A stretch of DNA of 32,900 nucleotides. It comes from Campylobacteraceae bacterium (GTDB taxonomy: Bacteria > Campylobacterota > Campylobacteria > Campylobacterales > Sulfurovaceae). Shown in pieces: positions 18,641-32,900 of this stretch. Below the pieces are notes generated by a model, which was given only the letters and a program-made list of their open reading frames with translations, was not told the origin of the DNA and did no database searches. Positions within the stretch are counted from its first letter, which is position 1; each line of letters starts with the position of its first letter. Made by a program: the position numbers and the translations under genes. The stretch spans positions 1-32,900 of the forward strand of contig JAMOOX010000127.1 of NCBI GenBank assembly GCA_027065045.1, given 5' to 3'.

Positions 18641-18646
18641 ATTATA
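18641..18646 (-). promoter_or_regulatory. Probable -10 element of the RNA polymerase gene
   Basis: On the minus strand, TATAAT within TAGATATAAT lies 28 bp before the polymerase ATG, with an AGGAT ribosome-binding site close to the start codon. It overlaps the left end of the 47-bp repeat at 18644-18690 that faces the other way, so the two promoters could interfere with each other. Confidence 0.5.
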
Positions 18647-18690
18647 TCTAAATTCAAGAATTTTCAAAGTATTGACATATAGAAAAAAAA
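18644..18690 (+). promoter_or_regulatory. 47-bp repeat, copy 1: candidate promoter for the single-subunit RNA polymerase
   Basis: Nearly identical to 18882-18928 (two mismatches in 47). The right half reads CAAAGTATTGACATATAG followed by eight A. TGACATATAGAA resembles the core of phage SP6 promoters (TGACACTATAGAA), which suggests initiation at G18682, 21 bases before the ORF1 ATG. A sigma70 reading fails: TTGACA is present, but 17 bp downstream there is only TTTCAA. That the neighbouring polymerase uses this site is inference. Confidence 0.6.
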
Positions 18691-18702
18691 GGAGTTTCAA
18701 TT

Positions 18703-18744
18703 ATGATTTGTGTAATTATCAAAGCTATTTGTGATGAACTGTAA
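18703..18744 (+). CDS. Tiny ORF1 of the cassette array (13 aa)
   Basis: ATG to TAA encoding a 13-residue peptide beginning MICVIIK with an acidic end (DEL). An AAGGAG ribosome-binding site at 18689-18694 lies 8 bases before the ATG, directly downstream of the candidate phage-type promoter, which argues for real translation. The first of six ORF-plus-hairpin cassettes. No family recognised. Confidence 0.5.
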   Translation: MICVIIKAICDEL

Positions 18745-18751
18745 TTTATGT

Positions 18752-18769
18752 GTAGCTTGAAATAGCTAC
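18752..18769 (+). repeat. Cassette hairpin H1
   Basis: GTAGCT-TGAAAT-AGCTAC, 6-bp perfect stem, 7 bp after the ORF1 stop. It is preceded by TTTATGT, which recurs before the other copies. Member of a family of six hairpins, each following one ORF. Confidence 0.75.
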
Positions 18770-18797
18770 TTACTATTTAATAATAAAAGGATTTAAT

Positions 18798-18851
18798 ATG
18801 AGATTTGAGGAATTAACAACTGTTTATCTACCTCCTCTATTTTGGTTGTAG
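18798..18851 (+). CDS. Tiny ORF2 of the cassette array (17 aa)
   Basis: ATG to TAG encoding 17 residues that begin MRFEEL and end in a proline/aromatic stretch (PPLFWL). AAAAGGA lies before the ATG. It follows hairpin H1 and is followed by a degenerate copy of the hairpin. No family recognised. Confidence 0.45.
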   Translation: MRFEELTTVYLPPLFWL

Positions 18852-18861
18852 TATTAGTTTA

Positions 18862-18879
18862 GTTGCCTGAGATGGCTAG
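18862..18879 (+). repeat. Degenerate cassette hairpin H1'
   Basis: GTTGCC-TGAGAT-GGCTAG keeps the loop and three inner G-C pairs of the family (compare H4, GTAGCC-TGAAAT-GGTTAC) but loses outer pairs. It follows the ORF2 stop by 10 bp and precedes the second 47-bp repeat by 2 bp. Confidence 0.5.
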
Positions 18880-18881
18880 AA

Positions 18882-18928
18882 ATATCCAAATTCAAGGATT
18901 TTCAAAGTATTGACATATAGAAAAAAAA
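18882..18928 (+). promoter_or_regulatory. 47-bp repeat, copy 2: candidate promoter for the single-subunit RNA polymerase
   Basis: Same element as 18644-18690. TATTGACATATAG ends at G18920, followed by nine A; initiation there would give a 23-base leader to the ORF3 ATG, nearly equal to the 21-base leader of copy 1. The strong conservation against divergent surroundings suggests a bound site. No sigma70 -10 occurs at the right distance from TTGACA. Confidence 0.6.
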
Positions 18929-18942
18929 ATAAAAGGATTTAA

Positions 18943-19005
18943 ATGATACCAGTTTCTGCTGTTGCCACTATTATTGGTGCAATTATTACTTCTTGTAAAA
19001 AGTAG
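18943..19005 (+). CDS. Tiny ORF3 of the cassette array, hydrophobic 20-aa peptide
   Basis: ATG to TAG encoding 20 residues: MIPVSAVATIIGAII followed by TSCKK. It is hydrophobic with a single Cys and a basic end. ITSC fits a lipobox, but the N-terminus lacks the usual Lys/Arg. AAAAGGA ribosome-binding site, 5 bases from the ATG. It clearly resembles ORF4 (M-x-P, AVA, II, a single Cys near the end, C-terminal Lys). A membrane-active peptide or mini-lipoprotein is possible; function unknown. Confidence 0.55.
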   Translation: MIPVSAVATIIGAIITSCKK

Positions 19006-19025
19006 TAAATGATTTAGATTTATGT

Positions 19026-19043
19026 GTAGCTTGTAAAAGTTAC
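19026..19043 (+). repeat. Cassette hairpin H2
   Basis: GTAGCTT-GTAA-AAGTTAC: 7-bp stem with one G-U pair in RNA, 20 bp after the ORF3 stop, preceded by TTTATGT. Confidence 0.72.
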
Positions 19044-19069
19044 TAACTTAATATATAAAAAGGATTAAA

Positions 19070-19138
19070 ATGATGCCATTTATACCTGCTGTTGCTATTA
19101 TTAGTGCAGTTGCAGTTGCTTGTAATAGTAGTAAGTAA
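19070..19138 (+). CDS. Tiny ORF4 of the cassette array, hydrophobic 22-aa peptide
   Basis: ATG to TAA encoding 22 residues beginning MMPFIPAVAIISAV, with a single Cys near the end and a polar tail (NSSK). An AAAAAGGA site lies just upstream; either of two adjacent ATGs could be used. It is a paralogue of ORF3 by pattern, which is the best argument that these tiny ORFs are genuinely translated. VAC before the tail is compatible with a lipobox. Confidence 0.55.
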   Translation: MMPFIPAVAIISAVAVACNSSK

Positions 19139-19152
19139 TTTAGATTTTATGC

Positions 19153-19170
19153 GTAGCTTGAAAAAGTTAT
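19153..19170 (+). repeat. Cassette hairpin H3
   Basis: GTAGCTT-GAAA-AAGTTAT: stem pairs through two G-U wobbles, so it is more stable as RNA than as a DNA palindrome. Preceded by TTTATGC, 14 bp after the ORF4 stop. Confidence 0.7.
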
Positions 19171-19201
19171 CAAATTAATATAAAAAATAAAAGGAGTTTC
19201 T

Positions 19202-19234
19202 ATGGGTGTATGTATCTGTTTCCCAAGAGTATAA
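19202..19234 (+). CDS. Tiny ORF5 of the cassette array (10 aa)
   Basis: ATG to TAA encoding MGVCICFPRV. An AAAAGGAG site stands 7 bases before the ATG, the same AAGGAGTTTC context as ORF1, and a family hairpin follows. Short and Cys-containing like ORF1; function unknown. Support comes only from the repeated cassette layout. Confidence 0.4.
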   Translation: MGVCICFPRV

Positions 19235-19251
19235 GTAAATATAATTTATGT

Positions 19252-19269
19252 GTAGCCTGAAATGGTTAC
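19252..19269 (+). repeat. Cassette hairpin H4
   Basis: GTAGCC-TGAAAT-GGTTAC: relative to H1 the inner T-A pair is changed to C-G on both arms, a compensatory change that supports a selected RNA stem. Preceded by TTTATGT. Confidence 0.75.
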
Positions 19270-19295
19270 TAATTTTAATAATAAAAGGATTTAAT

Positions 19296-19514
19296 ATGAG
19301 AGTATCTTATCATGCAGGTGAGAGGTTTTTGCAGAGAGTTTTTCAATTTAAGGAGTACACCAAGAAACAGGTTATTAATGCTATGCAATTAATAGAGAAA
19401 GATATATCTAATATCCAGTATCGTAGTTCCCACTTTGTATTGCCATCTTTTCCAAATTACCAATGTGTAGTATCTGATAATACTTTAGTGACTATCATCC
19501 CTAAGAGGGGATAG
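19296..19514 (+). CDS. Small protein of the cassette array (72 aa), possible DUF4258/RelE-like toxin fold
   Basis: A basic 72-aa protein starting MRVSYHAGERFLQRV. The HAxxRxxxR start, followed by a helix (KKQVINAMQLIEKDI) and a strand-rich end (CVVSDNTLVTIIPKRG), resembles the layout of DUF4258-type proteins, some of which are toxin-like; this is a weak, by-eye match. A longer reading frame opens at 19248, but that ATG is part of the conserved hairpin H4, so I take 19296, which has an AAAAGGA site as in the other cassettes. It is the last and largest ORF of the array and is followed by H5 and a T-tract. Confidence 0.65.
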   Translation: MRVSYHAGERFLQRVFQFKEYTKKQVINAMQLIEKDISNIQYRSSHFVLPSFPNYQCVVSDNTLVTIIPKRG

Positions 19515-19522
19515 CTCTATGC

Positions 19523-19548
19523 GTAGCTTGAAAAAGCTATTTTTTTTT
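19523..19548 (+). terminator. Cassette hairpin H5 plus T-tract: array terminator
   Basis: GTAGCTT-GAAA-AAGCTAT followed by TATTTTTTTT. This copy alone runs into an uninterrupted T-tract, so it should act as an intrinsic terminator for the array. It overlaps the stop codon of the convergent CARF-nuclease gene (ending at 19537). Confidence 0.75.
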
Positions 19549-21351
19549 GCTTTTTAATATATTTAATATTATATGGATATTATTCTTTATCTCTTCATTG
19601 GTAAAATTCCCACTACCAAATCCAAAGAAACCAAAACCACCACCATAATATACTTTTTTTTCTTTTATATTATCACTATAATAATCTACAAGAAGCTTTA
19701 TATCTCTACCATAATATATAAGTTCATCACCTCTATATATTAATATATTTTTACCATATAATCTATCTACTATTGCAGAAAATTTTGAGGTTAATGCTTC
19801 TAATAATACAATATCATCATATTTTTGTGCTAAATTAATTGATTTTATTGCCAACTCTTCATCTTTAGTCGTTACACCTTGTGCTTTACGGTCTTTTTTG
19901 CGTATCTCATCTATCTCTTTTTGTGTAGCACCAAAATTAACCATAGCAGGAATATATCCACTATCATTTAAGGCTATTAATTTATCTTTTCTACTTAAAT
20001 TTATACCTAATATATTAGCAACTTGTTCTAATGAGCTTAATTTTGATTGTTGTTCATTATGATGGTCTATTGTGATATAGTTCAATGGTGGGGCTATATC
20101 TTCTATTAACTCTATACCTATATATAGATAATTATTTTTGATATTATTTATATAGCTACTTAGTTTTGCACCCCAAGATAGATTATTATCTATATAGCTT
20201 TGATTATATCTATCTAATAGTTTTTTGATAGTTTTCATCTCTAAATCATATCCACCTAATAAAAACATTCTTTTTTTAATTTCAAAAAAGTTTGATACTT
20301 TTTTATCAAATTTTTTACTACCAAAAACATAACCATTATAGATATTAATAGAGTTTGTAATTGCTCTTAGTTTAGCTTTTTCTCCAAACACTACCTTTGG
20401 TTTTCTAATTTTATTACTATTATTTGGATGAATATTAACAATAATATTCTTACTATCATCTCCAAAATAGCCCAATAACGAATCACTTTTATATATAATA
20501 TCTTGTGCTGATATATTATCTCCTAATTTACACTCTATAGTATATATATGATTATCTTTGATAGCTAATATATCAAACTCATTATTTACAAACTCATCTT
20601 CTACACTATTAAATAAAACAATCACACCTATTTTTATATCATCAAAATTATATTTGATTAAGTTAAGATATATAAACTCTTCAAATAAGATACCAAAATA
20701 ACTAACATCCTTAATAGCTTTATAATTACTATCTATCATATTTAATTTTATTAAGATATTTATAATAATAGGATATTTTGAAGCTATATCTTCTAATCTA
20801 TTTTGCTGTAAATATCTTCTTACTCTAAAAAGTATATTAAAATCACCAAATAAAGTATTAATATACTCCTTTCTTTTGAATATATTATCTTGATTTACCT
20901 CTGATGTGATGTGATACCCTAAAGATGAAATAAACTTATCTATATTCATATTATTTGTAATAGTATGATTGCTAAAACCAATACTATCTATCAGATTATA
21001 GCTATTTTCAAACTTATCATAAGCAATTATTTTACCACCACACTTAATAACCACCCCAGATAATATCACAAGTAAAGCCGTATCACTACCCGTAGCATTT
21101 AGATATATATCTTCGCTATTTAGAGATATAATATCTTTTTGAATAGATAACATATCAGACTTACTATCCTCATCTAACTCCATCATCTCTATTTCCAAAG
21201 AGAAGTTTTTAATCCATTTTTTCAATCTATTAGCAGTAAACTTATCTTTATCATCATATATAAGAATATGTCTTTTTGTTTTATCCTTAAACTCATATAT
21301 TATTGGTGTAAGTTCATGTAACTCTCTATTTAATATAGTTATTAGTGTCAT
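19537..21351 (-). CDS. Card1/Can2-like CARF nuclease fused to a DHH-type phosphoesterase-like domain
   Basis: A 604-aa protein, much longer than Card1/Can2 nucleases (about 350-400 aa). Residues 1-150 look like a CARF domain (strand-rich start, HILIYDD, and DIYLNATGSDTALL matching the ligand-loop region). Residues about 215-280 hold a PD-(D/E)xK site: EFDILAI (Asp260) and TIECKLG (Glu273, Lys275), as in DUF1887 nucleases activated by cyclic tetra-adenylate. From about 360 a further region begins: FLLGGYDLE, then TIDHHNEQ (Asp429-His430-His431), LIALNDSGYI (Asp463) and a glycine-rich YYGGGFGFFGFG near 568, resembling DHH/DHHA1 phosphoesterases although upstream Asp motifs are weak. It is divergent from the CorA-Cmr operon, consistent with an ancillary effector that may also degrade a nucleotide messenger. 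Fusion and CARF calls are by motif; the DHH activity is inferred. Confidence 0.78.
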   Translation of the reverse strand: MTLITILNRELHELTPIIYEFKDKTKRHILIYDDKDKFTANRLKKWIKNFSLEIEMMELDEDSKSDMLSIQKDIISLNSEDIYLNATGSDTALLVILSGVVIKCGGKIIAYDKFENSYNLIDSIGFSNHTITNNMNIDKFISSLGYHITSEVNQDNIFKRKEYINTLFGDFNILFRVRRYLQQNRLEDIASKYPIIINILIKLNMIDSNYKAIKDVSYFGILFEEFIYLNLIKYNFDDIKIGVIVLFNSVEDEFVNNEFDILAIKDNHIYTIECKLGDNISAQDIIYKSDSLLGYFGDDSKNIIVNIHPNNSNKIRKPKVVFGEKAKLRAITNSINIYNGYVFGSKKFDKKVSNFFEIKKRMFLLGGYDLEMKTIKKLLDRYNQSYIDNNLSWGAKLSSYINNIKNNYLYIGIELIEDIAPPLNYITIDHHNEQQSKLSSLEQVANILGINLSRKDKLIALNDSGYIPAMVNFGATQKEIDEIRKKDRKAQGVTTKDEELAIKSINLAQKYDDIVLLEALTSKFSAIVDRLYGKNILIYRGDELIYYGRDIKLLVDYYSDNIKEKKVYYGGGFGFFGFGSGNFTNEEIKNNIHIILNILKSKKK

Positions 21352-21410: not shown

Positions 21411-22919
21411 ATGTCAAATATAATTAGTTACCACAATTTTATGTTTCCATTTAGGTTTGATAAGATTATAGAGTGTTTTGATGATAGACATCAATACTAT
21501 AAGAATAAAGAGTTTGATGAGAGAGTATTAATAGATAATAAGTTTAAAAAAAGTTTAGAAGATAATAATTGGAAATATAAGAAGTTTAATATAAATAATA
21601 GTTTAGACTATAATGAGATAGCTTATTATTATGACTTTGTCAAAGATAGTCTATTTAATATTAAAGATTTTGATGAAAAAGATAAAGCAACTTCATACTA
21701 TTTTACAAAAAATATCCAAGAAAATAGTAAATATATTATTAAAATATCTAAAAAAGAGTATATATTAAATCTAACCTCTATATCATTAAGAATTTTTGAT
21801 ACAGGAGTAGGAATATTATCATTTGAAACAGAGAATATTAACTATTCAGATATTAAAGATATACTTAAAATTAATGATTTTGGAAGACGAATATATCCAC
21901 AATTTTTAGGAGATAATTTTAATATAGATGCTACTCAAAATGCTTTTTTACCAGAGTATTTAGAAGTAAATGGTATAAAAGAAGATTTTAATAGGGAGTA
22001 TAAAAAACTTGATATTGAGTTAGCTAGTTTTATTACAGAAATTTTAGGAGATACATTTAGTACCCAAAAGAGTAAAAAAAATAAATATTTTATTCAGCCA
22101 TTATTAGATGATAGAATGTTTGTTTTATGTTGGTATGGTAGTGGTAAAGCTTCTAATGAAATAAAACGAAATTGGAAAGAAAATGATAATTGGTATAAAT
22201 TTGTATTTATAGATGGTGTGGAGAAAATGGTTCAAGATAATTCTATGCAAAATAAACTTATAGAACAATCAACCTATACTAGATGGAATGATTATGGCAC
22301 ATTTTATGGAATAACTAGATACTCTTTTGTATGTTTAACAGATAGGAAATTTTTTGGAACAAATATTATATCAAATCATATAAAAACCATCTATTTTCAA
22401 TTAATAATATTACTATTAGCCCAAAGAGGCTCAATTTTAAGATTTTCAGATGAGATTACAGCTATTTCAGATATTAATCAAGAGGATGAAATATCTAAAA
22501 ATATATCAGTTTTATATAAAAACTACCTAAGATTTAAAAATAAATTATATTTCAAAGAGGTAACAGCACAAGAACAAGGTATAGAACTATATGATAAAGC
22601 AAGAGAGATAATGAGAATAGATAGTGATATAACAGATTTATCAAATGAGATACTATCACTAAATAGTTATGCTTTTTTCCTTGAAGAGAGAGAAGAGAAA
22701 AAGCAAATGAATAAACTTACTAAACTTGGAACAATTTTTTTACCAGGGACATTTATTGCAGGTGTATTTGGAATGAATATTTTTCCCGAGAATTTCCTTA
22801 ATAATATAATAACTGGTTTTGTATTAGCTTTTGGGAGTATTATAGGACTAACATATTATCTTGCAAAGATTAATGATATTAGTATAAAAGATTTTTTTAC
22901 AAAGGATAAAAATGAGTAA
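21411..22919 (+). CDS. CRISPR-associated CorA-like membrane protein
   Basis: A 502-aa protein with a long soluble N-terminal region (about 1-430), a coiled-coil-like helix (EQGIELYDKAREIMRIDSDITDLSN region) and two C-terminal membrane helices (about 437-453 and 465-485) joined by the CorA signature GMN at 454-456. CorA proteins encoded in type III CRISPR loci are membrane effectors; in Bacteroides fragilis the CorA effector is activated by SAM-AMP made by Cas10. The gene leads the cmr operon and overlaps cmr1 by 8 bp, so its product is almost surely co-expressed with the interference complex. The N-terminal region is not similar by eye to housekeeping CorA and is probably the ligand sensor. 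Opening of a pore on activation is inference. Confidence 0.85.
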   Translation: MSNIISYHNFMFPFRFDKIIECFDDRHQYYKNKEFDERVLIDNKFKKSLEDNNWKYKKFNINNSLDYNEIAYYYDFVKDSLFNIKDFDEKDKATSYYFTKNIQENSKYIIKISKKEYILNLTSISLRIFDTGVGILSFETENINYSDIKDILKINDFGRRIYPQFLGDNFNIDATQNAFLPEYLEVNGIKEDFNREYKKLDIELASFITEILGDTFSTQKSKKNKYFIQPLLDDRMFVLCWYGSGKASNEIKRNWKENDNWYKFVFIDGVEKMVQDNSMQNKLIEQSTYTRWNDYGTFYGITRYSFVCLTDRKFFGTNIISNHIKTIYFQLIILLLAQRGSILRFSDEITAISDINQEDEISKNISVLYKNYLRFKNKLYFKEVTAQEQGIELYDKAREIMRIDSDITDLSNEILSLNSYAFFLEEREEKKQMNKLTKLGTIFLPGTFIAGVFGMNIFPENFLNNIITGFVLAFGSIIGLTYYLAKINDISIKDFFTKDKNE

Positions 22920-24048
22920 ATTTAAAGTAGAATTTAAACTAAAACAGCACACACCAATTATTCACTTCCAAAGTGACCAAATAGGAGCGACTTTAAGGGC
23001 TACGGAACTTAAACCTAAATTTGATAAGTTTTTGATAGAACAATTTGAAAAAGAAGAGATTAATTATGAAGAGTTTCTTATCCCTCAACAAGATAAGGCT
23101 TTGGATTATAAGGTTAAAATTGAGCCTAACATATCTCAAAATCAAGCTATAGATAAAAATAAAAATAAAAATCCTCTATTCTTTGGGAATATGGGAGATG
23201 GTAAAGATAAAAAATTTAAAAATCCTAATAAAACTTTTAAAATAGAATTTTTTAGTTTTAAACCAAAGATTATAGAAGTTATAGAAAAGTATTTTGAAGC
23301 TTTTTTAGCTAATACTAACTTTGGGACAAGACAATCAAAAGGATTTGGAAGTTTTTATATAGATAAAAAAGATTTTAATAAAACTCTAATTCCATATACA
23401 GTTTATAGCTTTTCTTCAAAAGATTGGCAAGAAAATATAGGACTTTTATATAAATTTCTAAGACAAGGGATAAATTTAACAGCAGGAATAGGTAACCCTT
23501 TTTATACCAAACCTGCTATTTTTACTTATGCCAGAAGTAAAAGTTGGGAATGGGATAAAAAAGCTATTAAAAGTGCATATTTTAGTGCTACTTTAAGTTC
23601 TCAAATATCAACACATGATAGTGATATATTAACTTATACATCAGGTACAAAATATCTATTAAGAGATTTATTTGGTCTTTCAAGTTCTCAAGAGTGGAAA
23701 AGTTATGGGAGAACGATAAAAAAAGAAGATATAAATATAGATGAAAATAATAAACCTATTATAGAGCGATTTAAATCACCTATTACTTTTAAAATAATAG
23801 ATAATACGGTATATTTTTGGGTAAATAATAGCTATAAATCTATATTAAATCAAACTTTTAATATAAAAGCTGGTAGGCTAAATAATACTCTTAATCTCTC
23901 AACCCCAAATAATGAGTTTAATTTTGAAGAGTTTTTAGATTTTGCTATTAATATCAAACTGAATACCCATATTAATAGCAGTTTTCATGATGCGGATAAA
24001 TTTCGTGATTTAAAAGAAATATTAAATAAGATAAAGGCTTCAAAATGA
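22912..24048 (+). CDS. cmr1: Type III-B CRISPR RAMP protein Cmr1
   Basis: A 378-aa RAMP-fold protein. The start (FKLKQHTPIIHFQSDQ) and the ATLRATELKPKFDKFL segment at about residues 26-41 are characteristic of Cmr1 proteins from Bacteroidota- and Campylobacterota-type systems. RQSKGFGSF at about 142-150 matches the glycine-rich RAMP loop. Cmr1 caps the 3' end of the complex and helps contact the target RNA. It overlaps corA by 8 bp and cas10 by 4 bp (ATGA). Cmr1 genes in some lineages are duplicated or fused; here it is single. Confidence 0.88.
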   Translation: MSKFKVEFKLKQHTPIIHFQSDQIGATLRATELKPKFDKFLIEQFEKEEINYEEFLIPQQDKALDYKVKIEPNISQNQAIDKNKNKNPLFFGNMGDGKDKKFKNPNKTFKIEFFSFKPKIIEVIEKYFEAFLANTNFGTRQSKGFGSFYIDKKDFNKTLIPYTVYSFSSKDWQENIGLLYKFLRQGINLTAGIGNPFYTKPAIFTYARSKSWEWDKKAIKSAYFSATLSSQISTHDSDILTYTSGTKYLLRDLFGLSSSQEWKSYGRTIKKEDINIDENNKPIIERFKSPITFKIIDNTVYFWVNNSYKSILNQTFNIKAGRLNNTLNLSTPNNEFNFEEFLDFAINIKLNTHINSSFHDADKFRDLKEILNKIKASK

Positions 24049-25322
24049 AATATATAGCACTAACAATAGGACCAATTTATAAGACACTCTCAAATGCAAA
24101 AAAACCTAAAGAGCTTTTTTCAAGTAGTTATATTTTCTCTTATATTATGAAAGAGATTATAAAAGAGTTTAGAGATAGAGAGTTTATTACTCCATATATT
24201 AAAGATGATAATGTATTTGATGATAGTGATATAGGACTCTTTCATGATAGATTTATATTTATATCACAAAGTGGAGATATAGAGAAACTTCCAAAAATTA
24301 TAGATGAAGTTTTAAATCATATTGCTACTAAATTAGAGTTAAATCTCAAAAGTATAAAAGAGTATTTACAAATTAACTATTTAGAAAAAGAGTTAGAAGA
24401 TAGTGATAACCCTATTTTAAAAATTACTCCATATCTTGATACTTTAGAGCTTTTTTATCAAACAACACAAGATATTAGTTTTGCTAATGCCCTAAGACGA
24501 AAAAAAGGGGATATAGATAACTTTCTTACAGATGGTAAAAATATTATTGATGACCTTAAAAGATTATCTTATAATAATTATTTTTGTGTAGTTCATGCTG
24601 ATGGTGATAAAATGGGTCAAGCTATCTCAAATAAAGATAATATAGAAGATGTATCAAAATTACTTTTTGAATATTGTAACTATTCACACCAAAAAATCAA
24701 AGAGTTTGGAGGACAAACTATTTTTGCTGGTGGTGATGACTTACTATTCTTTGCTCCTGTTGTTGGTAAAGATAATACAACTATATTTAATCTTTGTGAA
24801 ATTATAGGAGATGATTTTAAAAATAAATTTAAGTTAAAAGGTGGTGCTACTTTAAGTTTTGGAATTAGTGTCAATTATATTAAGTATCCTCTATATGAAG
24901 CTCTTGAAAATAGTAGAGAATTATTATTTAGTAAGGCAAAAAATGATAAAAGAAATAATATAGCCTTTAGAGTAACTAAACATAGTGGGCAATCTTTTGA
25001 AGCAGTTATTCATAAAGGAGATGATAAGGTTTATCAAAAATTCTTAGAGTTTGTAGCCATAATTACAGATGATAAAAAAGATAAAAACTTCTTACACTCA
25101 ATTCATCATAAAATAGATACTTATAAAACTACTATTAATCAAATTAAAAATAATAAAGTCAAACTTCAAAACTTTTTTGATAACTATTTTAATGAGTATG
25201 GACATCAAGATTATAAACTATTTTTTGAGACAATTGTAGATTTTATCCATAGTTCACAAGATTTAGATTTGGTTTATTCTACCCTTAGATTTATTAAATT
25301 TGTAAAAGGAGATAAAGAGTGA
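24045..25322 (+). CDS. cas10: Cas10 (Cmr2), small variant without HD nuclease domain
   Basis: A 425-aa large subunit. It begins directly with a palm domain (YIALTIGPIYKTL, SSYIFSYI). The second palm carries VVHADGDKMGQ at about 183-192 and the polymerase motif FAGGDDLLFF with GGDD at 229-232, so nucleotide cyclase or conjugase activity should be intact. There is no N-terminal HD nuclease domain and no CxxC zinc-finger pair, which explains the short length compared with the usual 700-1000 aa. Thus ssDNA cleavage by Cas10 is not expected and immunity must rely on messenger-activated effectors (CorA, CARF nuclease) and RNA cleavage by Cmr4. It overlaps cmr1 (ATGA) and the MNT gene (GTGA). Confidence 0.93.
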   Translation: MKYIALTIGPIYKTLSNAKKPKELFSSSYIFSYIMKEIIKEFRDREFITPYIKDDNVFDDSDIGLFHDRFIFISQSGDIEKLPKIIDEVLNHIATKLELNLKSIKEYLQINYLEKELEDSDNPILKITPYLDTLELFYQTTQDISFANALRRKKGDIDNFLTDGKNIIDDLKRLSYNNYFCVVHADGDKMGQAISNKDNIEDVSKLLFEYCNYSHQKIKEFGGQTIFAGGDDLLFFAPVVGKDNTTIFNLCEIIGDDFKNKFKLKGGATLSFGISVNYIKYPLYEALENSRELLFSKAKNDKRNNIAFRVTKHSGQSFEAVIHKGDDKVYQKFLEFVAIITDDKKDKNFLHSIHHKIDTYKTTINQIKNNKVKLQNFFDNYFNEYGHQDYKLFFETIVDFIHSSQDLDLVYSTLRFIKFVKGDKE

Positions 25323-25642
25323 TAAATATAGAGAATATTAAAAAAGAAATCGTTCAAAGACTTAAACCAATAAATGCAAATAAGATTATTCTCTTTGGTT
25401 CTTATGCTTATGGTACTCCAAATAAAGATAGTGATTTGGATTTATGTATTATCAAAGATAAAATAAATTCCAAAATCAAAGAAAAAAGAGAGATAAGAAA
25501 ACTTTTGAATAATATTGATATGCCTATGGATATATTAACTTTAGAAAACAATTATTATCTTTCTCATAGTGATAAAAATTGGATAAATACTCCTCTATAT
25601 GATATAAGAACTAAAGGAGATATTTTATATGAAAAAAAATGA
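25319..25642 (+). CDS. MNT-type minimal nucleotidyltransferase (antitoxin-like)
   Basis: A 107-aa protein. The MNT signature is complete: LFGSYAYG (Gly27-Ser28), DSDLDLCI (Asp39, Asp41) and a third acidic residue at Asp71 in PMDIL. It starts with GTG at 25319, overlapping the cas10 stop as GTGA, with AAAAGGAG upstream. MNT partners of HEPN toxins neutralise them by transferring AMP to the toxin. It overlaps the HEPN gene by 14 bp. Its position inside the cmr operon, between cas10 and cmr3, is unusual. Confidence 0.9.
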   Translation: MINIENIKKEIVQRLKPINANKIILFGSYAYGTPNKDSDLDLCIIKDKINSKIKEKREIRKLLNNIDMPMDILTLENNYYLSHSDKNWINTPLYDIRTKGDILYEKK

Positions 25643-26042
25643 TATAAAAAATAGTGCAGATATGTTTTTGTATAAAGCGAATATAGATTTTAATAGTGCT
25701 AGACATCTATACTCTTTATTTAATAGAGATGAGGTAGATATAGATATTGAAAAAGTCTATTTTGACCTACAACAGAGTGTTGAAAAACTACTAAAAGCAT
25801 TATTATCATATCATAAAATCAATGTACCTAAAATTCATGATATAAATAAGCTAATTAAAGATTGTATAAATAATAATATTTTGCTTATAGAAAATGTAGA
25901 ATTATTAATAGACCTTTCAGACTATGCTGTTGAGGGTAGATATGATATTATTTGTGATAATATAGAAGAAGCAGATGATTATTTTCTAAAAGTAGAAGAG
26001 TTACTACTATTTACAAAAAAATACTTAGGAGATAAAATATGA
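25629..26042 (+). CDS. HEPN-domain protein, partner of the MNT nucleotidyltransferase
   Basis: A 137-aa all-helical protein of the small HEPN family (PF05168-like): SADMFLYKANIDFNSARHLY, then YFDLQQSVEKLLKALLSYH, then KIHDINKLI, and AVEGRYDI near residue 102. The usual RNase motif RxxxxH is not plainly present; RYD stands where this subfamily often has RY(P/D). It may therefore be a regulatory or weakly active HEPN protein. Overlaps the MNT gene by 14 bp and cmr3 by 4 bp (ATGA), so it is translated as part of the Cmr operon. Confidence 0.82.
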   Translation: MKKNDIKNSADMFLYKANIDFNSARHLYSLFNRDEVDIDIEKVYFDLQQSVEKLLKALLSYHKINVPKIHDINKLIKDCINNNILLIENVELLIDLSDYAVEGRYDIICDNIEEADDYFLKVEELLLFTKKYLGDKI

Positions 26043-27085
26043 GATATTTAATTACACTTACACCATTAGAGCCATTTTTCTTTGGTGGAGATATTACATT
26101 TGGAAAATTTAAAAAACTTTTTGCAAAACTAAAGAAAATTAAGTTTACAAGTAGTCCCAAAGTATTAACCTTACGAGACTTTGAATATCATAGGATTGAG
26201 TTTTACAAGAAGTCTAAAGATGAAAATAATAGCTCTTATTTAGTCCAATCAAGATATTTTCCACAACAGAGTGCCATTTTAGGAATGATAAGAAAAGAGA
26301 TGTTAATCCAAAAAGGTTATCTTACAACCAAAAGAAAAGGCGAATGGATAGATAAAAGTCTAAAAGAAGAGGCTAAGAAATTTATAGGAGATAGTAAATT
26401 TGAGTTTGATACTAAACAAGATTTTGGAGTTTTTAAAAATATATCTCCTATCTTTTTGCTAAGAGGAGATAAGAAATTTATTAAAAAAGTAGCTATTGAT
26501 AAATATAGTGATGGATTGTTAGAAGGTTATAATCCAAAAGAGGATATTTATAATAACTTTATACCAATTGATAATGGTAAGCCTCTAAAAACAGAAGATA
26601 TTTTTAAAGAGGTAAAACAGATTGGAAACTCCAAAAATGATAAAGAGGATTCTCTATTTAAAAAAACAAGCTATATCTTAAAAGATAACTTTAAATTTGC
26701 TTTTTATATAGAGTCCGATTTTGAATTAAAAGATGCCTTTATAAACTTAGGTGGAGAGAAATCTACTTTTCAAATGAGTATTATAAAAACAGATGATACT
26801 TTAGAGTATAGAGATAAAAATGGTTATCTTACACTATTAAGTGATGCTTATATTGATATAGATATTAGAGATAATTGTGATTTTGCAATTACTAGTGAAA
26901 TATCTTTTAATTATCTACAAAATAAGTTTCAAGAAAATGGTAAAAAGATTTTTGATAAATCACCTAAAACAAGATTTTTATATGAAAAAGGCTCGGTTTT
27001 TATTAACCCAACAGATAAATTATTAGAAAACTTAAATAAACCAAATCTGCAAAAAATAGGGTTAAATATAGGAAGTTTAAAATGA
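26039..27085 (+). CDS. cmr3: Type III-B CRISPR RAMP protein Cmr3
   Basis: A 348-aa RAMP protein. The N-terminus YLITLTPLEPFFFGGDITFG is the classic Cmr3 opening, and RYFPQQSAILGMIRKEML near residue 80-97 is the conserved helix that follows. SFNYLQNK and KTRFLYEKGSVF in the last third are also family-like. Cmr3 binds the 5' handle of the crRNA together with Cas10. It overlaps the HEPN gene upstream and the putative nuclease gene downstream by 4 bp each (ATGA). Confidence 0.9.
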   Translation: MRYLITLTPLEPFFFGGDITFGKFKKLFAKLKKIKFTSSPKVLTLRDFEYHRIEFYKKSKDENNSSYLVQSRYFPQQSAILGMIRKEMLIQKGYLTTKRKGEWIDKSLKEEAKKFIGDSKFEFDTKQDFGVFKNISPIFLLRGDKKFIKKVAIDKYSDGLLEGYNPKEDIYNNFIPIDNGKPLKTEDIFKEVKQIGNSKNDKEDSLFKKTSYILKDNFKFAFYIESDFELKDAFINLGGEKSTFQMSIIKTDDTLEYRDKNGYLTLLSDAYIDIDIRDNCDFAITSEISFNYLQNKFQENGKKIFDKSPKTRFLYEKGSVFINPTDKLLENLNKPNLQKIGLNIGSLK

Positions 27086-27810
27086 GTGAATTAGATAAGA
27101 TAGAAGAGTTAGAAAAAGAGATAGAGGCTTTAAAATGTACTAAAGATAGCATTATCCCTAGCTATTCATATAGCAAAATTAGATTTTCTGATTTAAAAAA
27201 GGTTGTTACTCTCAAAAGATTATATGATAATGATATTTTTGATAAATGGTTTAATAATAATATTGATATTTCACAAAGCGATAAAGAATTTTTATCTAAT
27301 CTTATATCAAAATTCTCTTTTTTAATAGAGAGTTATAAAGAAGAAGATTTAAAAATCAAATTTATATCACCTATCTTAAACAGAGTAGATTTTTTATCAA
27401 AAGAGAAAGAGATAAGAGAGTATTATAATGAAAAAATGATATATAAAAGTGAGAAATTTATCTTCAATGGTGAGACTGATTTTATGATAGCAAAAGGTTT
27501 AGAAGAGAGCGAAAAACCATATTTCTTTATTCAAGAGTTTAAAAAATCTATCAAAAATGATGACCCAAGACCACAGCTTTTAGCAGAACTTATCTCTGCT
27601 ATTGAACTAAACGGTAATTTATCTATCAAAGGGGCTTATATAGTGGGGGCGATTTGGAATTTTGTTATTTTGGAGAAAGTAGATAAAGAGAGCTATACTT
27701 ATACCATTAGCCATAATTTTGATAGCACAAAGATAGATGAATTAGAAGATATTTACAAAAATTTAATATTTATAAAAAATGAAATTCTAGGAGAAAACAG
27801 TGAAAACTAA
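27082..27810 (+). CDS. Putative PD-(D/E)xK protein embedded in the cmr operon
   Basis: A 242-aa protein with an N-terminal charged coiled-coil-like start (about 1-20) and a helix-rich middle. A PD-(D/E)xK-type core is seen: EEDLKIKFISPIL at about 87-99, GETDFMIA (Asp133) and FFIQEFKKS (Glu152-x-Lys154), followed by a helix with PQLLAELISAIEL. This order (acidic helix, D, ExK, Q-containing helix) is the nuclease pattern seen in HsdR-N-like and similar proteins. It lies between cmr3 and cmr4 with overlaps of 4 and 11 bp. I do not recognise a named Cas family. It lacks a CARF domain, so any control must come from partners. Confidence 0.7.
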   Translation: MSELDKIEELEKEIEALKCTKDSIIPSYSYSKIRFSDLKKVVTLKRLYDNDIFDKWFNNNIDISQSDKEFLSNLISKFSFLIESYKEEDLKIKFISPILNRVDFLSKEKEIREYYNEKMIYKSEKFIFNGETDFMIAKGLEESEKPYFFIQEFKKSIKNDDPRPQLLAELISAIELNGNLSIKGAYIVGAIWNFVILEKVDKESYTYTISHNFDSTKIDELEDIYKNLIFIKNEILGENSEN

Positions 27811-28627
27811 ACTTTATACAATAGAGACATTAACAAATTTACATGTAGGTGCAGGTGATTTAAATTTTGATATAATTGATAATCAAGTCCAAAGAGATGA
27901 TATTACAGAGTTGCCAATTATTCATAGTAGTAGTCTAAAAGGTGCTTTTAGAGAGGCTTTTAGAGAAGATAATATAGAAGCTAAAAACTCTGAAAAGTAT
28001 ATATTTGGTCAAGAGAATAACTCAAATGAGACTCAAGCAGGGGCTTATAAATTCTTTGAAGCACAACTTTTAAGTCGTCCTGTAAGAAGTAATAACAGAG
28101 CATATTTTAATGCTACAAGCCCAAAAGCAGTTAAAAACTTTTTGGAAGCTATTGAAAATTTTAAAATAGAGTTTGATAATGAGTTAAAAACTAAATTAGA
28201 AGAGTTGTCAGAATTAAATCCAACAGACTCTAATCCTTTGATTTTTGAAAATATAGCAGATACTATACTTGAAGATAATACAGCTATCTATAAGAGTTTT
28301 AAGACTTCAAAACTACAAGAACTTTTAGGAGAGAATATAGCACTATTTAGTGATAAAGATTTTAAAGAGTTAGATTTACCTGTACTTGCTAGAAATCAAC
28401 TTGAGAATGGAGAGAGCAAAAACCTTTGGTATGAAGAGGTTGTACCAAAAAAATCTAAATTTTTCTTCTTTGTTGGTATGCCTGATAATTTAGATAAATC
28501 AGATAAAAAAGAGAAACTTGATGGATATAATAATAAATTTGAAAAATTATTAGAAAATCCTATTCAAATTGGTGCGAATAAATCTATTGGTTATGGATTT
28601 TGTAATATTACAAAGGTTTCAAAATGA
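27800..28627 (+). CDS. cmr4: Type III-B CRISPR RAMP nuclease Cmr4
   Basis: A 275-aa backbone subunit. The start IETLTNLHVGAG, then IIDNQVQRDDITELPIIHSS and SSLKGAFREAF, are diagnostic for Cmr4. Asp27, in IIDNQVQRD, corresponds to the catalytic aspartate that cuts target RNA at 6-nt intervals in characterised Cmr complexes, so RNA cleavage is probably retained. The C-terminus has IQIGANKSIGYGFC, the glycine-rich RAMP loop. It overlaps the putative nuclease gene by 11 bp and cmr5 by 4 bp. Confidence 0.95.
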   Translation: MKTKLYTIETLTNLHVGAGDLNFDIIDNQVQRDDITELPIIHSSSLKGAFREAFREDNIEAKNSEKYIFGQENNSNETQAGAYKFFEAQLLSRPVRSNNRAYFNATSPKAVKNFLEAIENFKIEFDNELKTKLEELSELNPTDSNPLIFENIADTILEDNTAIYKSFKTSKLQELLGENIALFSDKDFKELDLPVLARNQLENGESKNLWYEEVVPKKSKFFFFVGMPDNLDKSDKKEKLDGYNNKFEKLLENPIQIGANKSIGYGFCNITKVSK

Positions 28628-28983
28628 GTAAAAGAAGTATAGAAAAATATATTCCTAAGGCTATGGAAGTTTTAAAAGAAAACTTAGAAGGTGGTATATT
28701 CCCAAAAGAGTATAATGGATATATTTCAAGTTTTGGAGCAAGTGTAATTCAAAGTGGGCTAAAACCAACATTAGCACTCTTTGAAAATAAAAATAATACA
28801 GATAGATATAAAATAGTAGAGTTTATATTTGAAATTTTCAAAAGATATAATAATATAAATACAGAAGAGATTTTATTAATAAACTATGTTATAAATAATA
28901 ATAAAGATAATCTAAAAAAAGAGATTTTAGATATATCAATTGCTCTTAAATTAACTTTAAGAACTTTTAAAAAGGGGAACTAA
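28624..28983 (+). CDS. cmr5: Type III-B CRISPR small subunit Cmr5
   Basis: A 119-aa helical protein with SIEKYIPKAMEVLKENL at the start, YISSFGASVIQSGLKPTLALF in the middle and a helical C-terminus, the usual Cmr5 pattern (YIP, FGA, SGL.PTLAF). It forms the inner filament next to Cmr4. Overlaps cmr4 by ATGA and directly abuts cmr6. Confidence 0.92.
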   Translation: MSKRSIEKYIPKAMEVLKENLEGGIFPKEYNGYISSFGASVIQSGLKPTLALFENKNNTDRYKIVEFIFEIFKRYNNINTEEILLINYVINNNKDNLKKEILDISIALKLTLRTFKKGN

Positions 28984-29994
28984 ATGAGTAATTTAGGTTG
29001 GCAATTTTATAAGGGATATTTTAGAGATATTAATTGGAATAATATAGATGAAACAGCTATATCAAAAAAAGTAGATGATATTATAAATAGTCCTATCACA
29101 ATAGAGGCAAGTGAGCCTTTAGGAAATATCCACTTTAAAGCCTCTACAACCTACCCTGGGTTAATTTTGGGTAGTGGCTATCTTCATGAATTACCATCAA
29201 TTAAGGGTCAAGCAATATTAGGCTTTGATTTTGATTATACTTCAGGATTGCCTATTATTAGAGGAAGTAGTATCAAAGGTGTATTACGAAGTGCTTTTAA
29301 ACATCAAGATTATATTAAAGATTTGCTTTCAAAACAAAAAATAGAAGTTAAAAAACTAGAATTAGAAATATTTGGTCAAGATAATGATAGTAATCAAGTA
29401 TTACAAGGCAAAGATATATTTTTTGATGCTACAATTATCCATGGTGACAGAATTTTAGAAGATGATTATCTTGCACCTCATGGAGATAATCCACTTAAAA
29501 ATCCAACTCCATTAAGATTTATAAAAGTTGCACCAAATATAACTTTTAGATTTAATTTTCAATTAAGTGATGGGATTATCTCAAAAAAAGAGAAAGCTTT
29601 ACTGTTTGGACAAATTTTATATGATTTAGGAGTTGGGGCAAAAACAAATGTAGGATATGGTAAATTTAATGATAGACTTACAAAAGATAGATTAGAAGAT
29701 CAACTTAAAAAGAATGAAAAAGAAGAGCAAGAAAAAAAAGATGCTAAAGAGAAGATAATAGAAGATGAAAAAAATGCTAAGAAACTAGCCTCTATGTCTC
29801 CAATAGATGCTTTAAAAGAGCAAATTAAAAGTTTATCAGATAATAAAGATATATATGATTTATTAGTTGAAAAAAAGATAAAAGATAAAGATTTAGAGAA
29901 GTTTGTATTAGCTCAAATTGGAGCAAAACCAATAAGAAATAGACCAGCAAGAAGGAGATGGGCAATTAAAATTTATGAATTTTTTGGATTATAA
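28984..29994 (+). CDS. cmr6: Type III-B CRISPR RAMP protein Cmr6 with C-terminal extension
   Basis: A 336-aa protein. The RAMP core has GLILGSGYLHELP, GFDFDYTSGLPIIRGSSIKGVLRSAF (family hallmark; residues about 79-104), FFDATIIHGDRILEDDYLAPH and GVGAKTNVGYGKF. After about residue 235 comes a Lys/Glu-rich helix and a further roughly 65-residue segment (SPIDALKEQIKSLSD to the end) which ordinary Cmr6 proteins do not need; it could be a docking module. It abuts cmr5 and is 3 bp from the RT-Cas1 gene. Confidence 0.92.
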   Translation: MSNLGWQFYKGYFRDINWNNIDETAISKKVDDIINSPITIEASEPLGNIHFKASTTYPGLILGSGYLHELPSIKGQAILGFDFDYTSGLPIIRGSSIKGVLRSAFKHQDYIKDLLSKQKIEVKKLELEIFGQDNDSNQVLQGKDIFFDATIIHGDRILEDDYLAPHGDNPLKNPTPLRFIKVAPNITFRFNFQLSDGIISKKEKALLFGQILYDLGVGAKTNVGYGKFNDRLTKDRLEDQLKKNEKEEQEKKDAKEKIIEDEKNAKKLASMSPIDALKEQIKSLSDNKDIYDLLVEKKIKDKDLEKFVLAQIGAKPIRNRPARRRWAIKIYEFFGL

Positions 29995-29997
29995 CCC

Positions 29998-32115
29998 ATG
30001 CTAACCACTCCATACAAAAAAATATTCTCAAAAGCCTCTCTAAAAGAGGCTTTAACTCTTATCAAATCCAAAGGTTCAGGCATAGATAAAGAGTTTCTTG
30101 ATGACTTTAAAAAGTATGAGAAACTACATATCAAAGCTCTTAATAATGAGCTTTTAGATGGTATCTATTCACCTGAACCTATCAAAAAAATATCTATTCC
30201 CAAAAATGATAAAGAGTATCGTCCTATTGCTTTGGCATCTGTAAGAGATAAGGTAGTCCAAAGGGCTTTGGTAATGGCTATTGAACCATATTTTGATAAG
30301 CTTATGAGTAATAAAAGCTATGGATATAGACATGATAAAAGCTCTCTCAAAGCTATTGGTAGATGTAGTGATTTTATTAATCGTGGCTATTTTTGGGTAT
30401 ATAAAAGTGATATTGATAACTATTTTGAGACTATTAATCATGATAGATTACTTAATATTTTGGGTTCTCATATAGAGGATAAAAAGATTATCAAGCTTAT
30501 ATCTTTGTATCTTGAAAATGGAGGATTTAAAAACTATAACTATATAGACCATAATAAAGGAGTCCATCAAAGAGATATATTATCTCCACTTCTAAGTAAT
30601 ATTTATCTCAATGAGATGGATATGTTTTTGGATATAGGAGATGATAAGAGTTATAAGGCTTATATTTTTGAGCATGGATTTAGTTTTTTAGGAGTCCATT
30701 TCAAAGACAAAGATAAGAGTATAGATAATGAGAGATTATTAAAAAAAGTCTCTAAATTATTTGAGATAGCAAGAGAATCTAAAAATCCAAAAGAGTTTGT
30801 ATCTAAAGTTAATCTATTTTTAGATGGAATTCAACGCTATTATCTCAAAATAATCAAACCTAATTCAACACAATTTGAATTATTATATAATGCTATTATA
30901 GACTCATCTGCTCAATTTGTATTTTTACAAAGAAAAGCAGAGAAACTTAAAAATAAAAAAGATTTCAAAGAGCCATTTATAGATTTATATCTATTAAAAG
31001 AGACATCTATTACACAACATAAAGATATAGTAGAGAGAATTATATCAAGAGGATTTGAAAAGTATTTAGCCACCAAAGAATATACCAAAGATAGTAGCAA
31101 AATTTTAGCCAAAAAACAAAAATATACCAAAAGTTTTGCCTCATCTTCTACCCTTTATGTGAGTCAATTTGGAGCATATTTGGGTATGAGCAAAAATAGT
31201 ATTATAGTCAAACTCAAAGGCAAAGTAGTAGCTAAGATACCCAAAAGATTATGTGAACATATCATCATAGCAGGTAAAGCAATATCTATTAGTTCTAATA
31301 TGATATATCTATGTGTCAAAGAGGGAATAGCGATAGATTTTGTAGATGGCAGAGATAAACCATTTGCTTCTATATTATCTCCTAAAACTGCTTATCCCAA
31401 AATGGCATTGAGACAATTAGAGCTAATTAAAAGTAATAAAAGTTTAGACCTTGCCAAGAAATTTATATATGCCAAAGCCAAAAATCAGCTCAATTATCTC
31501 AAATATTTAGATAAATATCATCAAGAGATAGATAAAGAGATAGATTTTATAGAATATAAAGTCAAAAATAGTATCAAAAAAGCTACAACAGTAGCCCAAT
31601 TAATGGGATATGAAGGTGAAATTAGTGCAATATATTGGCAATCTTTGGCTACTATTCTCAAAGATAAAATTAATTTTGAGAATAGAAATACAAGAGGGGC
31701 AAAAGATATAGTAAATGCTTCATTAAATTATGCCTATGCTATACTATACTCCCGTATTCAAAATGCCCTACTCAAAGCAGGATTAGCTCTTAATGTCTCT
31801 TTTTTACACTCAATACAAGAGGGTAAACCAACTTTAGTTTATGATTGTATAGAGGAGTTTAGAGCCTTTATAGTAGATAGAGCGATTGTATCTATGTTCA
31901 ACAAAAATGAAGCTCTCAAAATCAATGCCAAAGGAGAACTTAGTAAATCTTCTTGTGAACTTATAGTCAAAAATGTAAAAGAGCGTTTAGGTGTATATAG
32001 TAAATATAGAAAAGCATCAAAAAAGGTAGATAACATCATCCAAGACCAAGCATATCTATTAGCACGACATATAAAAGGCGAAGCTAAATATAAACCATTT
32101 ATAGGAAAATACTAA
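29998..32115 (+). CDS. cas1: Reverse transcriptase-Cas1 fusion with a deleted RT active site
   Basis: A 705-aa fusion. Residues 1-235 are group II intron-like RT: KSKGSGIDKEFLDDF, YRPIALASVRDKVVQRAL, SYGYR, and motif A WVYKSDIDNYFETINHD (Asp138). The next motif is altered (GVHQRDILSPLLSN; relatives usually have PQG), and the YxDD catalytic box is absent: MDMFLD jumps at about residues 210-214 into GDDKSYKAYIFEHGFSFLGVHF, which normally lies some 40-50 residues further on. A maturase-like segment follows (250-370), then Cas1 (about 383-705) with Glu539 (MGYEGEISAIYW), His604 (SFLHSIQ) and Asp616/Glu619 (LVYDCIEEFR). No Cas6 domain is fused. Integration by Cas1 looks possible; reverse transcription does not. 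The frame is open throughout; start ATG is 3 bp after cmr6. Confidence 0.93.
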   Translation: MLTTPYKKIFSKASLKEALTLIKSKGSGIDKEFLDDFKKYEKLHIKALNNELLDGIYSPEPIKKISIPKNDKEYRPIALASVRDKVVQRALVMAIEPYFDKLMSNKSYGYRHDKSSLKAIGRCSDFINRGYFWVYKSDIDNYFETINHDRLLNILGSHIEDKKIIKLISLYLENGGFKNYNYIDHNKGVHQRDILSPLLSNIYLNEMDMFLDIGDDKSYKAYIFEHGFSFLGVHFKDKDKSIDNERLLKKVSKLFEIARESKNPKEFVSKVNLFLDGIQRYYLKIIKPNSTQFELLYNAIIDSSAQFVFLQRKAEKLKNKKDFKEPFIDLYLLKETSITQHKDIVERIISRGFEKYLATKEYTKDSSKILAKKQKYTKSFASSSTLYVSQFGAYLGMSKNSIIVKLKGKVVAKIPKRLCEHIIIAGKAISISSNMIYLCVKEGIAIDFVDGRDKPFASILSPKTAYPKMALRQLELIKSNKSLDLAKKFIYAKAKNQLNYLKYLDKYHQEIDKEIDFIEYKVKNSIKKATTVAQLMGYEGEISAIYWQSLATILKDKINFENRNTRGAKDIVNASLNYAYAILYSRIQNALLKAGLALNVSFLHSIQEGKPTLVYDCIEEFRAFIVDRAIVSMFNKNEALKINAKGELSKSSCELIVKNVKERLGVYSKYRKASKKVDNIIQDQAYLLARHIKGEAKYKPFIGKY

Positions 32116-32399
32116 TGGCAAATTATATAGTAACTTATGATATATCAGATAATAAAAGACGCAAAAAAGTATCAGATATTTTAGAGGGATATGGTAAAAG
32201 GGTAAATTACTCCGTCTTTGAGATACAACTATCTACAAAAGCCCAAAAGAAATCAATAGAAAGAGAGTTATTAAAAGAGTTAAATCCCAAAAAAGACTCT
32301 TTGCGATTTTATCATATATGTAAAAACTGTATAGATAAATCTTGGAGTCTAGGAGAAGAAAATGCTCCATTTGAGAGAGATGCTATATACTATTTTTAA
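32115..32399 (+). CDS. cas2: CRISPR adaptation protein Cas2
   Basis: A 94-aa ferredoxin-fold protein beginning NYIVTYDISDNKRRKKVSDILEGYG, with the family's Asp in strand 1 (YDIS), then RVNYSVFEIQLS and LRFYHICKNC. It forms the Cas1-Cas2 integration complex with the RT-Cas1 fusion, whose stop codon overlaps its ATG (TAATG). It is the last gene of the operon before the structured non-coding region. Confidence 0.96.
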   Translation: MANYIVTYDISDNKRRKKVSDILEGYGKRVNYSVFEIQLSTKAQKKSIERELLKELNPKKDSLRFYHICKNCIDKSWSLGEENAPFERDAIYYF

Positions 32400-32420
32400 T
32401 CCATTTTCATCCCAAAACGA

Positions 32421-32754
32421 TTTGCGAACTTTTTGAAATTGGCAAACCCCCATTTTTAGGGCTTATAATTTTTACTTATGGGTTAAAAAAGTTCGCAAAC
32501 CTCCAATTTATCAAATTCAAAAAATAGGTTTGCGAACTTTTAGTTTAGTTTAAATCTCGTACCCCCTATTTTAGGGCTATTATAAACTTAAAATTGACTT
32601 AAAGTTCGCAAACCTATACTTAGTTATTTTTAAAGAGATAGGTTTGCGAACTTTTTTGACAAGATAAACCCCCATTTTTAGGGGGTATTTAGCTATTTTA
32701 AGTTATAATTTGGCTTATATTGACACATATAGTCATATAGATTTGCGAACTTTT
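32421..32754. repeat. Six copies of TTTGCGAACTTTT in alternating orientation, forming degenerate ~110-bp tandem units
   Basis: Plus-oriented copies begin near 32421, 32529, 32642 and 32742; minus-oriented copies (AAGTTCGCAAAC core) lie near 32490-32500 and 32603-32613. Each minus copy pairs with the plus copy about 25-30 bp downstream as an inverted repeat. The plus copies recur every 100-113 bp. The intervening sequence is only loosely conserved, so this is not a CRISPR array. The last copy abuts the -35 of the promoter at 32755. Confidence 0.8.
32447..32685. repeat. Three C-run/G-run hairpins within the tandem units
   Basis: CCCCCATTTTTAGGG at 32447-32461, CCCCCTATTTTAGGG at 32562-32576 and CCCCCATTTTTAGGGGG at 32669-32685 each lie between TTTGCGAAC-family sites. 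The third is a perfect 5-bp G-C stem. Their regular recurrence (115 and 107 bp) shows that the whole ~110-bp unit was duplicated. Confidence 0.7.
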
Positions 32755-32783
32755 TTGACAAAAATGCTTCAAGGTTCTATAAA
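32755..32783 (+). promoter_or_regulatory. Strong sigma70-like promoter, probably the CRISPR leader promoter
   Basis: Consensus TTGACA at 32755-32760, a 17-bp spacer and TATAAA at 32778-32783, reading toward the right window edge. It is immediately preceded by a TTTGCGAACTTTT site, which may be an operator. With no ORF following, transcription of a CRISPR array beyond the edge is the natural use. Confidence 0.65.
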
Positions 32784-32839
32784 AGGCTACTGTTTAGTAT
32801 TTTTTTATTAAATAAAATTCTATAAATTTATTTAATTCC

Positions 32840-32854
32840 CCCTATCTAATAGGG
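32840..32854 (+). repeat. Short GC-rich hairpin
   Basis: CCCTAT-CTA-ATAGGG, 6-bp perfect stem, in the putative leader just before the possible first CRISPR repeat. Confidence 0.5.
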
Positions 32855-32900
32855 TTTCCCTGCTTATTTGTGGGGAGGTTATTTTAAGACTTCGTCTTTC
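32854..32900 (+). CRISPR. Possible first CRISPR repeat at the window edge (unconfirmed)
   Basis: A stretch starting GTTTCCCTGC and containing CCC and GGGG runs lies about 70 bp past the promoter, downstream of cas2, where an array would be expected. The GTTT start fits many repeats. Only one copy is visible, so the call rests on position alone. Confidence 0.2.

What the first reader, a model, noticed from the sequence alone, without database searches (positions are those of the whole stretch)
30587..30700. RT-Cas1 whose RT catalytic motif is deleted in frame
The sequence passes from the SPLLSNIYLNEMDMFLD segment straight to the GDDKSYKAYIF and SFLGVHF segment, so the YxDD box and about 40-50 surrounding residues are missing. 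The preceding motif is also altered (HQR where PQG is usual). The rest of the 705-codon frame, including the Cas1 active site, is intact. The system has probably lost RNA-spacer acquisition while keeping DNA-spacer integration; or the RT remnant has become structural.
Basis: partly seen in the sequence, partly recalled or inferred. Interest (0 to 1): 0.75.

Follow-up and report, generated by a model that had tools for sequence, protein, structure and literature searches.

The report
CRISPR RT-Cas1 with deleted RT core
A bacterial CRISPR "memory-writing" enzyme that normally joins an RNA-copying half to a DNA-inserting half has lost 40 amino acids, including the RNA-copying active site, while its DNA-inserting half stays intact, and relatives show that this half has been lost several times by different routes.

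Summary
The RT-Cas1 fusion at 29998-32115 (705 aa; type III-B cmr operon, cas2 and array leader downstream) lacks 40 residues that every intact relative has: RT motif 5 ([YF]xDD) and the helix after it. It also carries a private G192R change in RT motif 4. "HQG" rather than "PQG" is the norm in this clade, so only the final R is abnormal. Of 37 fused frames compared from this bacterial order, only this one lacks [YF]xDD; its closest intact relatives (~70% identical) keep it. The Cas1 active-site residues and Cas2 are intact. The RT is therefore almost certainly inactive. From published mutants (Thiomicrospira D540A; Marinomonas RT-deletion) the protein most likely still integrates DNA spacers but not RNA. 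That step is inferred.

Surviving RT sequence evolves no faster than intact RTs, so the loss is recent or the remnant is still constrained. RT loss recurs nearby: a MITE plus a stop codon (G158), deletion of the whole RT (G598), and stand-alone Cas1s inside the RT-Cas1 clade (G568/G614). Spacer strand skew cannot show the loss, because RT-free type III arrays are skewed too. Reads were not available, so an assembly error is unlikely but not excluded.

The parts
29998..32115 (+). RT-Cas1 fusion gene, 705 aa; RT part 1-~300 (catalytically broken), linker ~300-383, Cas1 384-705 (intact)
30625..30640 (+). Deletion junction (F210-L211-D212 | I213-G214): 40 codons absent relative to relatives, including motif 5 [YF]xDD
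   Evidence: alignments; DNA arms compared
30571..30573 (+). Codon 192 (AGA, Arg) where all compared relatives have Gly (HQG/YQG/NQG, RT motif 4)
31147..32112 (+). Cas1 domain (residues 384-705), active-site residues E539, H604, D616/E619-E620 present
32115..32399 (+). cas2
32400..32853 (+). CRISPR leader; repeated TTTGCGAACTTTTT motifs on both strands
32854..32890 (+). First CRISPR repeat (37 bp); the array continues on contig C56 (8 repeats, 7 spacers)
32891..32900 (+). Start of a leader-proximal spacer (TTCGTCTTTC) that differs from the first spacer on C56 (TTACCAG...)
22912..29994 (+). cmr operon: Cmr1 (22912), Cas10/Cmr2 with GGDD (24045), nucleotidyltransferase + HEPN pair (25319, 25629), Cmr3 (26039), PD-DExK-like (27082), Cmr4 (27800), Cmr5 (28624), Cmr6 (28984)

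Best explanation
This is a type III-B RT-Cas1 whose RT has been inactivated by a clean in-frame 120-bp deletion. The deletion removed the YxDD catalytic strand pair and most of the helix that, in the Thiomicrospira structure, runs from the RT active site into the Cas1 active site. A second hit, G192R, lies in RT motif 4. Shown: the deletion, G192R, the intact Cas1 residues and Cas2, and no faster change in the RT remnant than in intact RTs. Inferred: Cas1-Cas2 still integrates double-stranded DNA spacers at the leader, while cDNA synthesis, 3' dN-tailing of RNA and RNA spacer capture are lost. It would be a natural counterpart of the laboratory RT-dead and RT-deleted RT-Cas1 proteins and one step of a recurrent loss of the RT in this clade.
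For: All 36 other fused frames keep [YF]xDD and the motif-4 Gly. L004 and L005 (about 70% identical) are intact. Cas1 active-site residues and the Cas2 frame are intact. Relative-rate tests show no excess change in the RT remnant. Residue mapping onto 7KFT places the FADD aspartates and most of helix alpha9 in the deletion, while the K574 equivalent (K217) is kept. [quoted passage not shown] PMC11014452: Marinomonas RT-deleted Cas1 still acquires spacers, with the signature of DNA-derived ones. Other RT losses with Cas1 kept: L006 MITE + TAG, L240 with Cas1 96% identical to an intact RT-Cas1 but residues 1-404 gone, L243/L244 stand-alone Cas1 inside the RT-Cas1 clade. The junction is compatible with a short-repeat deletion (5' arm TTTTTGGAG, inferred from L006; 3' arm about TTGGATATAGG).
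Against: No reads, expression or spacer-acquisition data. No protospacers were found, so the origin of the spacers is unknown. The closest relative, L008, has both RT and Cas1 broken, so the whole gene may be decaying. Only one genome carries this allele. The structure prediction was too poor to test whether the remnant folds.
Confidence: 0.7

Rival explanations
1. The adaptation gene is simply decaying: the in-frame deletion is its first lesion and Cas1 is already useless, because a misfolded RT lobe destabilises the protein.
For: The closest relative L008 has lost part of the RT and has a frameshift in Cas1; several other RT-Cas1 genes in the order are split or truncated. The array is short (7 spacers).
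Against: The frame is kept through the deletion and all of Cas1; conserved Cas1 sites are intact and only one private change falls at a conserved Cas1 column. Two versions of the leader-proximal spacer start hint at recent acquisition, though weakly.
Confidence: 0.2
2. Assembly artefact: a collapse or chimeric read removed 120 bp and the real gene is intact.
Against: The lost stretch is unique sequence, the inferred direct repeat at the junction is only about 5-6 bp, the loss is exactly in frame, and an independent G192R lies in the adjacent catalytic motif.
Confidence: 0.07
3. RT activity is supplied in trans by another RT of the cell, so RNA spacers are still captured.
For: Two further RTs exist in the genome (C88, C7).
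Against: Neither lies in a CRISPR locus; both are at contig ends and have YVDD-type sequences, one followed by a lectin-like reading frame, i.e. diversity-generating-retroelement-like by inspection. No second RT-Cas1 is present.
Confidence: 0.03

Closest known systems
RT-Cas1 fusions of RT clade 2A (Epsilonbacteraeota; PMC6013744), type III-B associated
   Same: Domain order RT-Cas1 without Cas6, neighbouring cas2 and cmr genes, HQG-type motif 4, 37-bp repeat array downstream of cas2.
   Different: The catalytic YxDD segment (40 aa) is deleted and the motif-4 Gly is Arg; none of the 36 other fused frames compared shows this. Clade 2A assignment is by host lineage, not by a tree with that paper's reference RTs.
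Laboratory RT-dead/RT-deleted RT-Cas1 (Thiomicrospira D540A, PMC8102632; Marinomonas RT-deletion, PMC11014452)
   Same: RT catalysis removed, Cas1 kept; predicted DNA-only integration.
   Different: Natural allele; it loses the active-site hairpin together with most of the RT helix but keeps fingers, thumb and the K574-equivalent lysine.
Stand-alone Cas1 derived from RT-Cas1 (L240 in G598; L243/L244 in G614/G568)
   Same: Cas1 of the RT-Cas1 clade without a working RT, cas2 next to it.
   Different: There the whole RT coding part is gone; here most of it remains fused.

Membership tests
RT-Cas1 fusion protein | Group II-intron-like RT domain fused N-terminal to Cas1 in one frame | tested here: met
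   RVT_1 67-209 (partial), group_II_RT_mat 14-211, Cas_Cas1 386-640
RT-Cas1 fusion protein | RT catalytic triad including [YF]xDD (motif 5) | tested here: not met
   Motif absent; present in all 36 other fused frames compared. It is a derived, RT-inactive member by descent, not a working RT-Cas1
RT-Cas1 fusion protein | Conserved Gly of motif 4 (xQG) | tested here: not met
   G192R, private to this sequence
RT-Cas1 fusion protein | Spacer acquisition from RNA | not testable with these tools
   No protospacers found; strand skew is not diagnostic
Cas1 integrase | Active-site Glu, His and Asp/Glu | tested here: met
   E539, H604, D616/E619-E620 conserved
Type III-B (Cmr) CRISPR-Cas | Cmr1-Cmr6 with Cas10/Cmr2 | tested here: met
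   Pfam, NCBIfam and PADLOC matches for Cmr1, Cas10/Cmr2 (GGDD), Cmr3, Cmr4, Cmr5, Cmr6

The most novel reading that the evidence does not exclude
The RT lobe has been kept as a non-catalytic scaffold: removing the active-site hairpin and the helix that plugs Cas1 turns the fusion into a DNA-only integrase. RT inactivation with Cas1 retained would then be a recurrent, selected transition in Campylobacterota RT-Cas1 systems.
Probability: 0.2. Interest if true: 0.55.

Novelty: new variant of a known kind. Interest (0 to 1): 0.42.

Why it matters
It is a natural experiment on what the RT of an RT-Cas1 is for: a type III-B system that has lost RT catalysis by a precise deletion but kept the integrase. 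Together with the relatives that lost the RT by a transposon insertion, a stop codon or deletion of the whole domain, it suggests that RNA spacer capture is dispensable and repeatedly lost while adaptation machinery is retained. This can be tested by biochemistry and by spacer sequencing in the native hosts.

Tried and rejected
(1) Spacer strand skew as a readout of RNA-derived spacers. 17 of 18 RT-Cas1 arrays are pyrimidine-rich (mean skew 0.165), while this array (7 spacers) is not (0.016, p about 0.01). Stand-alone-Cas1 type III arrays in the same order show the same skew (L170 +0.13, L174 +0.18, L188 +0.27), and the array beside the broken RT in G158 is still skewed. The skew therefore does not depend on the RT, and the argument was dropped. 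(2) Protospacer search in 398 related genomes and in phage records: no convincing match. (3) AlphaFold model of the remnant with a two-row alignment: pLDDT 40, unusable. (4) RT-specific relaxed selection: not seen. (5) Stand-alone Cas1 of G568/G614 as proof of old RT loss: nested in the tree, but the AU test does not reject the alternative (p 0.145). (6) No report of a naturally RT-dead RT-Cas1 was found in the open papers searched; subscription journals were not covered.

Full report
What is there. The window is one whole contig (C127, 32,900 bp) of a 164-contig, 2.06-Mb genome whose relatives are Campylobacterota: the named relatives are a Campylobacteraceae MAG and Arcobacter plasmids. At its right end lies a type III-B operon: Cmr1, Cas10/Cmr2 with GGDD, a nucleotidyltransferase/HEPN pair, Cmr3, a PD-DExK-like protein, Cmr4, Cmr5, Cmr6, then RT-Cas1 (29998-32115), cas2 (32115-32399), a leader, and the first repeat of an array. 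The array continues on contig C56 with 8 repeats and 7 spacers; the two contigs share 73 bp (leader end, repeat, 2 bases) and then diverge.

The observation. RVT_1 stops at residue 209 and Cas1 starts at 384. In the alignment of fused RT-Cas1 frames from the order, this is the only one of 37 without [YF]xDD. The gap is exactly 40 residues, from after L211/D212 to I213. The closest intact relatives, L004 and L005 (about 70% identical), have VRYADD.

Mode of loss. Relatives give the likely arms. In L006 the 5' side is ATG TTT TAG GAG, a stop codon at the very Leu where the present deletion begins; in L008 the 3' side is CTAAAGATAGGTGAT. The junction TTTTTGGATATAGGA fits a deletion between short direct repeats of about 5-6 bp; this is inference. 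Such a junction is not where an assembler collapses, but reads were not available.

Age and constraint. Counted against L004 and L005, this protein's private changes are 24 versus 14/20 in the RT N-part, 26 versus 18/14 in the RT C-part plus linker, and 42 versus 11/25 in Cas1. Tajima-type tests against four outgroups show no excess in the RT remnant. The remnant is therefore not an old, freely drifting fossil: the loss is recent, or the remnant is constrained.

Structure and mechanism. The alignment to Thiomicrospira Cas6-RT-Cas1 (7KFT) puts its FADD aspartates (D540) and most of RT-helix alpha9 inside the deletion, while the helix-tip lysine K574 corresponds to K217, which is kept. In that protein alpha9 reaches into one Cas1 active site; [quoted passage not shown] Marinomonas RT-deleted Cas1 still acquires spacers, and those carry fewer noncoded end nucleotides, like DNA-derived ones (PMC11014452). 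By analogy the present protein should be a DNA-only integrase. A folding attempt with a two-row alignment failed.

RT loss recurs. L006 (G158) has a MITE with more than 15 copies in that genome inserted in the RT, plus a TAG stop, with the Cas1 part open. L240 (G598) has a Cas1 96% identical to the intact RT-Cas1 of G453 (L064), but the first 404 residues are gone and CRISPR repeats lie in their place. L243/L244 (G614/G568) are stand-alone Cas1-Cas2 pairs that fall inside the RT-Cas1 clade, although the AU test does not reject the alternative (p 0.145). L008, the closest relative, is broken in both halves.

Spacers. Spacers of RT-Cas1 arrays in the order are pyrimidine-rich, as expected for crRNAs antisense to mRNA; the seven of this genome are not. 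Type III arrays with ordinary Cas1 are equally skewed, so this does not report on the RT and is not used as evidence. No protospacers were found. Contigs C127 and C56 carry different starts of the leader-proximal spacer, which may reflect recent acquisition or strain mixture (weak).

Verdict. Real, and best read as a recent natural RT-dead allele of an RT-Cas1, with DNA integration probably retained. The kind of system is known; the natural inactivation, and its recurrence by several routes in the same clade, was not found described in the papers searched.

Noticed in passing
window 15934-18612 (-): 892-aa single-subunit phage-type RNA polymerase (Pfam RNA_pol, E 4e-99), unusual in a bacterial chromosome-like contig.
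   Followed up: partly
window 18644-19540: Repeated modules upstream of the RNA polymerase: five TATG[TC]GTAGC..GCTAC-like hairpin units, most heading a tiny, often hydrophobic ORF, and two 96%-identical 47-bp AAATTCAAG.ATTTTCAAAGTATTGACATATAG elements; possibly promoters of that polymerase.
   Followed up: no
window 19537-21351 (-): 604-aa protein that joins a CARF/PD-DExK (Card1-like) nuclease to a DHH hydrolase ('DHH_CorA' in PADLOC), divergent from the CorA effector at 21411. It may fuse a cyclic-oligonucleotide effector with a messenger-degrading enzyme.
   Followed up: partly
window 25319-26042 (+): Nucleotidyltransferase + HEPN pair (MNT-HEPN type) embedded between Cas10 and Cmr3, in the same operon and strand.
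   Followed up: no
window 32421-32761: Leader carries several copies, on both strands, of TTTGCGAACTTTTT; the motif also appears after cas2 in L008, so it is a conserved leader element.
   Followed up: partly
L240 (G598) 1100-1500: CRISPR repeats lie directly upstream of cas1 where the RT coding region of close relatives should be, suggesting that recombination with an array removed the RT.
   Followed up: partly
L006:1126-1370 (G158:C39): MITE-like element with terminal GGGCACCTCGAAAAACTCTAG inverted repeats inside the RT; more than 15 copies in G158 and related copies in G086.
   Followed up: yes
L095-L113, L170, L174, L188: Type III spacers in this order are pyrimidine-rich in crRNA sense whether or not the adaptation module has an RT.
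   Followed up: partly
G000:C7:2-1202 and C88:2-955: Two further RTs with YVDD at contig ends, one followed by a lectin-like reading frame; they look like diversity-generating retroelements.
   Followed up: no
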